Shown here: piece by piece, positions 35,776-38,326 of the stretch
Layout: each line of letters begins with the position of its first letter
Numbering within the stretch: the first letter of the stretch is position 1
NCBI GenBank assembly: GCA_022450565.1
Contig: JAKUOP010000012.1
Coordinates: 1-58,464, forward strand
Source of the DNA: Candidatus Nitrosopelagicus sp.
GTDB taxonomy: Archaea; Thermoproteota; Nitrososphaeria; Nitrososphaerales; Nitrosopumilaceae
Reading direction: 5' to 3'
Length of the DNA: 58,464 bases
Program-made: the position numbers and the translations under genes
Notes under the pieces: model-generated
Told to the model about the DNA's origin: nothing
Database searches by the model: none
What the model saw: the letters and a program-made list of their open reading frames with translations, nothing else

Positions 35776-36996
35776 ATGATAATGGCTAAAACCAATCTAA
35801 AATGCAGAGAATGTACAAAGGAGTATGAACCTACGTTCAAGTATATCTGTGATGAATGTTTTGGACCTCTTGATGTACACTATGATTTTCCAGAAGTAAC
35901 TAAAGAAACATTTCAAAATAGGGAAAAAACATACTGGCGTTATCATGAACTTTTACCAATTCACGATAAGAAAAACATAGTAAGTATTGATGCAGGAATG
36001 ACTCCATTAGTAAAAGCGGAGAAACTTGGTGACGAACTAGGTCTAAGAAATCTATACATTAAAAATGATTCAGTAAATCCAACATTTTCATTCAAAGACA
36101 GACCTGCTGGAGTTGCAATTTCTAAAGCAAAGGAGTTTGGTCTAAAATCTGTTGGTTGTGCATCTACAGGTAATTTGGCTTCTGCAACTGCAGCTCATGC
36201 AGCAAAAGCAAACATGCCATGTTACATCTTTGCACCAAGTAATATTGAGACAGCAAAAATTGCACAAGCACTATCTTACGGTGCTGAATACATTTCTGTT
36301 GACGGTACTTATGATGAGGCAAATAGAATTGCAGCACAAATTGGTGACAGAAAGGGTGTAGGTGTAGTTAACATCAATATGAGGTCATATTATGTAGAAG
36401 GATCCAAAACTTTGGCTTATGAAGTAGCAGAACAATTACATTGGAATGTTCCAAACCACCTGATAGTTCCTACTGGTAGTGGTGCAATGTTAAATGCAAT
36501 TTGTAAAGGATTTGAAGAATTACAAACTGTTTCATTACTTGATAATTTGTCATCAATGCACATGCATTGTGCACAACCGCATGGATGTGCACCTATAGTT
36601 GATGCATTTAAGAAAAATTCTGACAAAGTAATCCCAGTAGAACAACCTGAAACTGTTGCAAAAAGCCTAGCAATTGGTGATCCTGGAGATGGTCGTTATG
36701 TACTAAAAAGATTAAAACAATACAATGGGATTGCAGAAGAAACAAATGATAAAGAAATTCTAGACGCAATTTTACTTTTAGCCAAAACCGAAGGAATATT
36801 CACAGAGCCTGCTGGTGGAGTCTCTGTTTCTATTTTAAAGAAAATGGTGGAGGAAGGCAAGATTGACAAAGATGAAATTACCGTATGTTATGTCACAGGT
36901 AATGGTCTAAAAGCTACTGAGTCAATTATGAGTGTATTAACAAAACCACAGGTAATGCAAGCTGATGTTGCAAAGATTTCAGCAGTAATAGGATGA
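35776..36996 (+). CDS. thrC: Threonine synthase (zinc-ribbon type, PLP fold II)
   Basis: Converts O-phosphohomoserine to threonine. The 406 residues have an N-terminal zinc ribbon (two CxxC) and PLP lysine in PTFSFKDRPAG. Other conserved parts are the SGNLASATAAHAA segment and GSGAML. ATG 35776 or 35782 could start it; the latter gives MAKTNLKC. It is followed after 10 bp by a ubiquitin-like/E1 fusion, so the two share a transcript. Archaeal threonine-synthase homologues can have other substrates (cysteate synthase is one), so the alternative of a sulfur-accepting enzyme fed by the neighbour is worth testing. Confidence 0.88.
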   Translation: MIMAKTNLKCRECTKEYEPTFKYICDECFGPLDVHYDFPEVTKETFQNREKTYWRYHELLPIHDKKNIVSIDAGMTPLVKAEKLGDELGLRNLYIKNDSVNPTFSFKDRPAGVAISKAKEFGLKSVGCASTGNLASATAAHAAKANMPCYIFAPSNIETAKIAQALSYGAEYISVDGTYDEANRIAAQIGDRKGVGVVNINMRSYYVEGSKTLAYEVAEQLHWNVPNHLIVPTGSGAMLNAICKGFEELQTVSLLDNLSSMHMHCAQPHGCAPIVDAFKKNSDKVIPVEQPETVAKSLAIGDPGDGRYVLKRLKQYNGIAEETNDKEILDAILLLAKTEGIFTEPAGGVSVSILKKMVEEGKIDKDEITVCYVTGNGLKATESIMSVLTKPQVMQADVAKISAVIG

Positions 36997-37006
36997 TGAT
37001 TGTATA

Positions 37007-38326
37007 ATGGCAAAGATTACTTTTACAATTCCATCAGTTCTCAATGCAGGTGGTGGCGAAAAAAAGACAGAACTTGATACTTCAACATTAAAAGATGCTT
37101 TTGAGAAAATTTCAGAGATTATGGGTGATGACTTTAAGAGAAGAGTATTAGAGTCAGATGGGTCTCCACGTTCACTGATTAATATTTACGTTAATGGAAA
37201 GAACGCAGCATTTTCTGATGGATTGGATACGCCTCTAAAAGATGGTGATGAAATTTACATACTTCCAGCCGTAGCTGGAGGTTCTGATCTTTCTGAAAAA
37301 GAACTTGATCGATTTTCTAGACAAGTAATGCTAGAACAGATTGGATATGATGGACAATTAAAATTAAAGAATTCTACAGTTTGTGTTGTAGGTGTTGGGG
37401 GTCTTGGTAATCCAATCACATCACGTTTAGCTGCAATGGGTGTTGGTAAACTTCGAGTTGTTGATAGAGATGTAATTGAACTCTCAAACTTGCACAGGCA
37501 AACAATGTTCAACGAAGATGATGTAGGTCAAGTTAAGGTTGAGGTTGCAGCGAAGAAATTAAAAAAAATCAATCCAGAAGTTGAGATTGAAGCACTCCCT
37601 ATTTCCATAAATGATTATACTGCACTTGATGTTGTAGAAGGTTGTGATGTGGTAGTAGATGCACTTGACAGTGTTAACGCTCGCTATTCTTTAAACAAAG
37701 CATGTGTAGAAAAAAACATTCCTTTTGTTACAGGAGCTGCGGTTGGTGTAACAGGTCAAGTGTTTACAGTTTTGCCAAAAAAAACAGCATGTTACAATTG
37801 CTTGTTTCCAACATTGGATGAGGATTCAATGCCAACTTGTAGCATAGAGGGTGTACACCCATCAATTCTTTCTGTTATTGGCGGTCTAGAAGTTCATGAA
37901 GCAGTAGATGTTTTAATTGGAAAAATACCAAAATCTTCAGAAAAGTTCCTGAGTATTGATTTAGAGAACTTGGAATTTTCATCTGTTAGGATGTTCAAAC
38001 AAGAAGAGTGCTCAGTATGTGGTTCTGGTAAGAGAGATGAAGTCCCAAAGCAGGAGCTTATTCTAGAAGAATTATGCGGAAGAAACATGGGAAGCCGTAC
38101 ATTCTCAATTACGCCTACATACAATGTGGAACTAAATGTCGATAACGTTACAAGTATTGCAAAAGACAAAGGGTTCCTAGTTGAAAATCAAGGCAAGCTA
38201 GGTTTGTCACTTCGCACAAATGATCTTTCTGTTAGTTTTATGAAAAGTGGTTCAGCTGTAGTAGTAGGACCAAAGGATGAGTCTGAGGCAATATCACTCT
38301 ATAAAGAGCTCATAAAAAGATCGTAG
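37007..38326 (+). CDS. MoaD/ThiS-like ubiquitin-fold domain fused to MoeB/ThiF-type E1 enzyme
   Basis: A 439-residue fusion. Residues 1-92 are a beta-grasp sulfur-carrier-like domain ending in AVAGG, Gly91-Gly92. Residues 93-345 are an adenylating E1-like domain: ATP loop around GVGGLG at 129-134, RQTMF region, zinc cysteines C262/C265 and C335/C338, and a likely catalytic Cys278 in PTCSIEGV. Residues 345-439 are an extra C-terminal domain that I do not recognise. E1 domains normally activate the free diglycine end of a separate carrier, but here it is internal and continues directly into the E1 part. It is likely in one operon with thrC (10 bp apart). Confidence 0.87.
   Translation: MAKITFTIPSVLNAGGGEKKTELDTSTLKDAFEKISEIMGDDFKRRVLESDGSPRSLINIYVNGKNAAFSDGLDTPLKDGDEIYILPAVAGGSDLSEKELDRFSRQVMLEQIGYDGQLKLKNSTVCVVGVGGLGNPITSRLAAMGVGKLRVVDRDVIELSNLHRQTMFNEDDVGQVKVEVAAKKLKKINPEVEIEALPISINDYTALDVVEGCDVVVDALDSVNARYSLNKACVEKNIPFVTGAAVGVTGQVFTVLPKKTACYNCLFPTLDEDSMPTCSIEGVHPSILSVIGGLEVHEAVDVLIGKIPKSSEKFLSIDLENLEFSSVRMFKQEECSVCGSGKRDEVPKQELILEELCGRNMGSRTFSITPTYNVELNVDNVTSIAKDKGFLVENQGKLGLSLRTNDLSVSFMKSGSAVVVGPKDESEAISLYKELIKRS

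What the first reader, a model, noticed from the sequence alone, without database searches (positions are those of the whole stretch)
37007..38326. Ubiquitin-like sulfur-carrier domain fused in cis to its own E1, with an internal Gly-Gly
Residues 1-92 look like a MoaD/ThiS/SAMP beta-grasp ending in AVAGG, and residue 93 onward is a complete MoeB/ThiF-like adenylating enzyme with intact ATP loop, zinc cysteines and a candidate catalytic Cys278. An E1 normally acts on a free C-terminal diglycine. Here the Gly-Gly is followed at once by the E1. The carrier must be cut out after translation, or work in cis as a modified substrate, or be inactive with a separate carrier used in trans. There is also an unrecognised C-terminal domain of about 95 residues. 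ThiS/MoaD-E1 fusions have been noted in surveys of prokaryotic ubiquitin relatives, so the novelty is the processing question and the pairing with thrC.
Basis: partly seen in the sequence, partly recalled or inferred. Interest (0 to 1): 0.75.

Follow-up and report, generated by a model that had tools for sequence, protein, structure and literature searches.

The report
Ubiquitin-like carrier fused to its activator
In ammonia-oxidising archaea a small ubiquitin-like sulfur carrier is made as one chain with the enzyme that activates it; the fusion has been known since 2010, but comparative evidence here says the carrier must be cut free after its Gly-Gly tail before it can work.

Summary
ORF 37007-38326 encodes a ThiS/MoaD-type ubiquitin-like protein (Ubl, residues 1-92, ending LPAVAGG), joined to a complete MoeB/ThiF-type E1 (about 103-340). 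The 'unrecognised' C-terminal domain is a TBP-like domain. This exact architecture, 'Ubl-E1-TBP in Thaumarchaeota', was published in 2010 (PMC2948915), so the fusion is not new.

New evidence bears on the processing question. (1) In relatives, thrC, ubl and E1 are separate genes and the Ubl stops directly after GG; in five genomes a single in-frame stop separates Ubl from E1. (2) In the fused clade LPAV[AS]GG is invariant, while the next residue and the linker vary. (3) In one genus the genes have split again and the free Ubl carries 8-15 residues beyond GG. (4) Complete Nitrosopumilaceae genomes encode no free Ubl. (5) Every genome scanned had a JAMM-type protease match.

Most likely the chain is a precursor cut after Gly92, probably by a JAMM protease, and the freed Ubl carries sulfur for tRNA thiolation. 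Molybdenum cofactor is unlikely: MoaE is absent. The thrC pairing is real (109 of 109 loci, median gap 1 nt) and unexplained. Cleavage itself is inferred, not shown.

The parts
35776..36996 (+). threonine synthase-like PLP enzyme (thrC), first gene of the conserved pair; 10-nt gap to the fusion
   Evidence: NCBIfam PRK08197 threonine synthase 305.8 bits over cut-off 303; directly upstream of the Ubl in 109 of 109 loci with enough flank, median gap 1 nt
37007..38326 (+). Ubl-E1-TBP fusion protein, 439 aa
   Evidence: ORF and domains; found in most genomes of the family and order
37007..37282 (+). residues 1-92: ThiS/MoaD/SAMP-type beta-grasp Ubl, ending LPAVAGG
   Evidence: Pfam PF02597, TIGR01687 above cut-off; 6 of its last 7 residues invariant in 28 orthologues
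37277..37282 (+). codons of Gly91-Gly92, inferred processing point (after Gly92)
   Evidence: both glycines invariant in the fused set; C-terminal in orthologous separate Ubls; cleavage itself not tested
37283..37312 (+). residues 93-102: linker between Gly92 and the E1 core
   Evidence: first residue S/A/T/E/L in fused proteins; 10-23 residues from GG to the [YF]SRQ motif; model pLDDT below 50 around it
37313..38023 (+). residues 103-339: MoeB/ThiF/UbaA-type adenylating E1 core
   Evidence: Pfam PF00899 E 2e-75; fold match to ThiF/MoeB
37391..37408 (+). ATP-binding loop GVGGLG (129-134)
   Evidence: Gly129/131/132/134 invariant
37790..37801 (+). first zinc pair CYNC (Cys262, Cys265)
   Evidence: invariant cysteines; position as in MoeB/ThiF
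37838..37840 (+). Cys278, candidate catalytic cysteine
   Evidence: invariant; aligned to the cysteine of the corresponding E. coli ThiF loop
38009..38020 (+). second zinc pair CSVC (Cys335, Cys338)
   Evidence: invariant
38054..38323 (+). residues 350-439: TBP-like C-terminal domain
   Evidence: profile hits TATA-binding proteins; model pLDDT 92 with top PDB fold hits all TBP; described in PMC2948915

Best explanation
The ORF encodes a precursor: an archaeal Ubl sulfur carrier joined to its own E1 (UbaA/MoeB type, with TBP-like domain), second gene of a thrC-ubl-E1 operon. Shown: domains, invariance of the tail, split relatives, gene order. Inferred: the fusion arose when the stop codon directly after the Ubl's Gly-Gly was lost in the ancestor of ammonia-oxidising archaea. 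Inferred: a protease, most likely a JAMM-type desampylase, cuts after Gly92 and so provides carrier and enzyme in equal amounts. The E1 then adenylates the freed Gly92 and, with Cys278 and a persulfide donor, makes a thiocarboxylate. Inferred: the main sulfur acceptor is the TtuA/Ncs6 tRNA-thiolation enzyme; conjugation to proteins is possible as well.
For: Tail: in 28 fused proteins 6 of residues 86-92 are invariant (22 of 92 in the whole Ubl; hypergeometric p 6e-4); mean entropy 0.03 bit there, 1.04 in the rest of the Ubl, 1.47 in 93-101. Origin: in other families of the order the Ubl ends at GG, and in G085, G032, G075, G061 and G053 one in-frame stop lies between PAVSGG and the E1. Re-split Ubls: in genus g2 (G019, one contig, 99% complete; G054; G219) the Ubl ends GGNSKGYGYG, GGSRSSINITSSTGVWI and GGNSSIKKGYG in one frame and the E1 starts in another; in the tree this trio is a supported group (98/90) inside a clade with fused members. 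No other source of a free tail: five one-contig Nitrosopumilaceae genomes have just two Ubl domains each, both inside long proteins; 18 genomes of the window's genus with a hit show no free one. No separate E1 start: 21 of 28 have no ATG/GTG/TTG between GG and the E1 core. Protease: the own genome has two Prok-JAB proteins with the HxHx7SxxD motif, one related to desampylase; all 54 genomes scanned had a match. Precedent: MoaX is cut between Gly82 and Ser83 (PMC4326299); HvJAMM1 cuts SAMP1-MoaE after the terminal Gly (PMC4443979); DRJAMM cuts MoaD-MoaE (PMC8832034). Acceptor: TtuA with its LIM domain is in the complete same-genus genome G105 and MoaE is missing from all 13 fused-clade genomes tested.
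Against: No cleavage has been observed. The JAMM genes are not next to the fusion. Gly-Gly is equally invariant in the second fused Ubl (Ubl-Cgi121, IHGG in 22 of 22), for which nothing shows processing, so invariance alone does not prove cutting. A strong TtuA hit was not found in the window's own 95%-complete genome, only in its relatives. The operon partner is thrC, not a tRNA-thiolation gene.
Confidence: 0.66

Rival explanations
1. The chain is never cut. The Ubl is a built-in structural or regulatory domain of the E1, and the E1 acts without it as substrate.
For: The fusion has been kept across the ammonia-oxidising clade. In bacterial ThiF proteins with a fused N-terminal Ub-like domain a separate ThiS usually co-occurs, suggesting another role for the fused one (PMC1779556). 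The Ubl-Cgi121 fusion also keeps GG.
Against: Complete Nitrosopumilaceae genomes have no free Ubl for the E1 to act on. A structural domain does not explain why the floppy tail is its most conserved stretch, nor why the re-split genus kept an intact Ubl as a separate protein.
Confidence: 0.2
2. The carrier feeds sulfur to the adjacent ThrC-like PLP enzyme, which makes cysteine or homocysteine instead of, or besides, threonine, in the manner of CysO-CysM.
For: thrC is directly upstream in 109 of 109 loci, both fused and split, median gap 1 nt. A related cluster in G022 has cysteine synthase, JAMM and Ubl-E1-rhodanese side by side. Many relatives carry a second ThrC-like protein.
Against: In the window's genome this is the only ThrC-like PALP protein found (others are IlvA, TrpB and a CysK-like one), and it scores as threonine synthase above cut-off, so it is probably needed for threonine. 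A CysK-like protein is already present. No JAMM lies in the operon.
Confidence: 0.14
3. The freed Ubl acts mainly as a protein modifier (SAMPylation-like), the E1 serving conjugation rather than sulfur transfer.
For: Archaeal SAMPs do both jobs (PMC4443979); one JAMM is desampylase-like; the Ubl matches SAMP1 though under its cut-off.
Against: Nothing here separates it from sulfur transfer, and TtuA is widely present in the fused clade.
Confidence: 0.2
4. The fusion cuts itself by an acyl shift at Gly92-Ser93.
For: Ser follows GG in most orthologues (88 of 112).
Against: Ala, Glu, Leu or Thr stands there in other fused proteins, and linker length varies.
Confidence: 0.05

Closest known systems
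Thaumarchaeal Ubl-E1-TBP protein (arCOG01676 survey, Makarova and Koonin 2010, PMC2948915)
   Same: Same lineage and same domain order; this gene is a member.
   Different: That paper, as far as the passages searched in its main text show, does not discuss processing of this fusion, split relatives, or thrC.
MoaX, fused MoaD-MoaE of Mycobacterium tuberculosis (PMC4326299)
   Same: MoaD-type Ubl with internal Gly-Gly followed by Ser; cut after the second Gly is needed for function.
   Different: Fused to the sulfur-using enzyme MoaE, not to the E1; a free MoaD also exists there.
SAMP1-MoaE fusion and HvJAMM1 of Haloferax; MoaD-MoaE and DRJAMM of Deinococcus (PMC4443979, PMC8832034)
   Same: JAMM protease releases a Ubl from a linear fusion; JAMM homologues are present here.
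   Different: The partner is MoaE; the Haloferax fusion is artificial.
ThiF with N-terminal Ub-like domain in bacteria (PMC1779556)
   Same: Ubl fused in front of an E1.
   Different: Usually accompanied by free ThiS, and in thiamine operons.
CysO-CysM-Mec+ cysteine synthesis
   Same: Ubl carrier, PLP enzyme and JAMM as possible partners.
   Different: Carrier is a separate protein; here the PLP enzyme is ThrC-like and JAMM is elsewhere.

Membership tests
ThiS/MoaD-type ubiquitin-like sulfur carrier | profile match of the family | tested here: met
   PF02597 and TIGR01687 above cut-off
ThiS/MoaD-type ubiquitin-like sulfur carrier | free C-terminal Gly-Gly in the encoded protein | tested here: not met
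   GG is internal, followed by Ser93; orthologues in split lineages do end at GG
ThiS/MoaD-type ubiquitin-like sulfur carrier | thiocarboxylate formed at the last Gly | not testable with these tools
   needs biochemistry
MoeB/ThiF/UbaA E1 | ATP loop, four zinc cysteines, catalytic cysteine, E1 fold | tested here: met
Thaumarchaeal Ubl-E1-TBP | Ubl, E1, TBP-like domain in this order, in this lineage | tested here: met
   PMC2948915
Proteolytically matured Ubl fusion (MoaX kind) | internal Gly-Gly conserved in the fusion | tested here: met
Proteolytically matured Ubl fusion (MoaX kind) | JAMM protease present in the genome | tested here: met
Proteolytically matured Ubl fusion (MoaX kind) | cleavage after the second Gly in cells | not testable with these tools
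   needs proteomics or in vitro assay
CysO-CysM-Mec+ type amino-acid pathway | adjacent JAMM gene and PLP sulfhydrylase | tested here: not met
   neighbour is ThrC-like and no JAMM is adjacent
Molybdopterin synthase system | MoaE present in the genome | tested here: not met
   no MoaE in G000, in G105 or in 11 other fused-clade genomes; controls rang in 11 of 14

The most novel reading that the evidence does not exclude
A whole archaeal family (Nitrosopumilaceae) encodes no ubiquitin-like protein with a free diglycine end: both Ubls of a genome are made as fusions (Ubl-E1-TBP, Ubl-Cgi121), so the sulfur or modifier pathway runs only after a processing protease acts, making that protease a master switch; the thrC partner ties it to amino-acid synthesis.
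Probability: 0.4. Interest if true: 0.62.

Novelty: new member of a known kind. Interest (0 to 1): 0.45.

Why it matters
Ammonia-oxidising archaea are abundant, and their Ubl chemistry seems to depend on an untested processing step. The re-split genus, the one-stop-codon relatives and the lack of any free Ubl make the question directly testable by looking for a peptide ending at Gly92. The fixed pairing with threonine synthase is an unexplained lead.

Tried and rejected
Natural knock-outs: eleven 96-99% complete Nitrosopumilaceae genomes gave no E1 match and most also lacked thrC. This looked like co-loss, but in seven genomes the contig ends just after the upstream his genes and in others hisF itself is missing, so most are assembly gaps; I dropped the argument. 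Only G148 has its his genes inside a long contig with no thrC after them, which is unresolved. Self-cleavage at Ser93: rejected because the residue varies. Separate translation of the E1: no conserved start codon. Molybdenum cofactor role: MoaE absent. A paper on archaeal Urm1 in yeast had nothing on this fusion.

Full report
What is there. The ORF at 37007-38326 on the + strand is intact and codes for 439 residues. Its N-terminus matches ThiS/MoaD profiles, its middle the ThiF/MoeB E1 family; solved relatives include ThiF, MoeB and Uba4, and for the Ubl a ThiS/MoaD protein (4n6e) and a mycobacterial 9.5 kDa protein (3dwg). The ATP-loop glycines, the four zinc cysteines and Cys278 are invariant in 28 fused orthologues. 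The model (mean pLDDT 81) has an N-terminal domain with beta-grasp-like elements, an E1 core matching ThiF/MoeB, and its lowest confidence at 89-95 and 97-110, the stretch with the Gly-Gly. The C-terminal 90 residues fold with pLDDT 92 and match TATA-binding proteins by profile and by fold, weakly but consistently.

Where it comes from. The nearest named loci are Candidatus Nitrosopelagicus (94% identity). The genome is a 1.1 Mb draft, 95% complete. In the order, 178 of 200 genomes have a match. Full-length fused matches occur in groups f1, f3, f8 and part of f2, which I read as the ammonia-oxidising archaea (inference; group codes carry no names). In f4, f7, f11, f13 and f14 a separate Ubl lies just before a separate E1.

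How the fusion arose. In five f14 genomes the translation runs thrC end, Ubl, PAVSGG, one stop, then E1 in the same frame. Loss of that stop would give the fused form. The E1 tree needs two changes between fused and split. It is not reliably rooted, so direction is inferred from the outlying split families. The second change lies in genus g2: three genomes have Ubl and E1 in different frames, with a Ubl tail of 8, 9 or 15 residues beyond GG, while G035 and G046 of the same genus are fused with long linkers. The three linkers differ and one genome is a single contig, so a sequencing slip is unlikely, though not excluded.

Why cutting is likely. An E1 adenylates a free C-terminal carboxylate (established knowledge). 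In five one-contig Nitrosopumilaceae genomes the only two Ubl domains found lie inside this fusion and inside a Ubl-Cgi121 protein; the own genome is the same, and no genome of the window's genus in that scan showed a free one. G020, G025 and G019, from f3, f8 and f2, have one extra short Ubl, so the argument is strongest for Nitrosopumilaceae. Residues 86-92 are nearly frozen while 93-101 drift and the linker ranges from 10 to 23 residues. Seven of 28 have some start codon in the linker, 21 none, so separate translation of the E1 is not a general solution. Every one of 54 genomes scanned had a Prok-JAB match, although a few matches were partial; the two in the own genome carry HSHPNSNALPSNTD and HSHPTGSEEPSLED, which fit HxHx7SxxD, and one matches the halobacterial desampylase model, below its cut-off. 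Linear Ubl fusions are cut after the last Gly in three published cases. A caution: Ubl-Cgi121 keeps IHGG in 22 of 22 genomes with no evidence of processing, so conservation alone is not proof.

What it is for. MoaE is absent from all 13 fused-clade genomes tested and present in all five split-lineage ones, so molybdopterin is an unlikely product. A PP-loop protein with a TtuA N-terminal LIM domain is in the complete genome G105 of the same genus, and strong PP-loop family hits occur through the fused clade, so tRNA 2-thiolation is the best candidate; the own draft genome shows only a weak hit, perhaps a gap. The operon partner is always thrC: 109 of 109 loci, gap -4 to 53 nt, median 1. In the own genome this is the only ThrC-like protein, so it probably makes threonine; a second ThrC-like protein exists in a number of relatives. 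Whether ThrC takes sulfur from the carrier is open.

What is known. Makarova and Koonin (PMC2948915) named both fusions, Ubl-E1-TBP and Ubl-Cgi121, in Thaumarchaea. Iyer and colleagues (PMC1779556) noted Ubl-ThiF fusions and suggested that JAB proteases may free fused Ubls. I found no paper in the held library treating the processing of this fusion; the library lacks most subscription journals.

Verdict. The architecture is known; the evidence on stop loss, tailed re-split Ubls, absence of any free Ubl in the family and the fixed thrC pairing is what this study adds. Cleavage is inferred.

Noticed in passing
L060 145-1710 (genome G023, contig 143): One 521-aa ORF joins a Ubl ending PPVGGG to what reads like a MiaB/MtaB-type radical-SAM methylthiotransferase (tRNA sulfur enzyme).
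   Followed up: no
L062 137-2907 (genome G022, contig 90): Cysteine synthase-like gene, JAMM gene and a Ubl-E1-rhodanese fusion in a row, a separate kind of Ubl-E1 fusion with PSVAGGS at the joint.
   Followed up: partly
L002 1363-2136 (own genome, contig 6): Ubl-Cgi121 (KEOPS subunit) fusion with invariant IHGG in 22 of 22 genomes; already reported in PMC2948915, but why the internal GG is kept is unexplained.
   Followed up: partly
L109 1-1404 (own genome, contig 11): CysK-like PLP enzyme with a C-terminal extension that reads like rhodanese (VCMAGRTS); no Pfam rhodanese hit, so this is by eye.
   Followed up: partly
L193 1204-2580 and similar loci L194-L208: A second ThrC-like protein of about 450 aa, above the TIGR00260 cut-off in the one tested, in many relatives but not found in the window's genome.
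   Followed up: partly
his operon to thrC to E1 region in relatives (contig ends in L230, L231, L234-L238): Draft genomes of this family often break just after hisF/hisI, before thrC-Ubl-E1, so apparent loss of these genes in drafts should not be trusted.
   Followed up: yes
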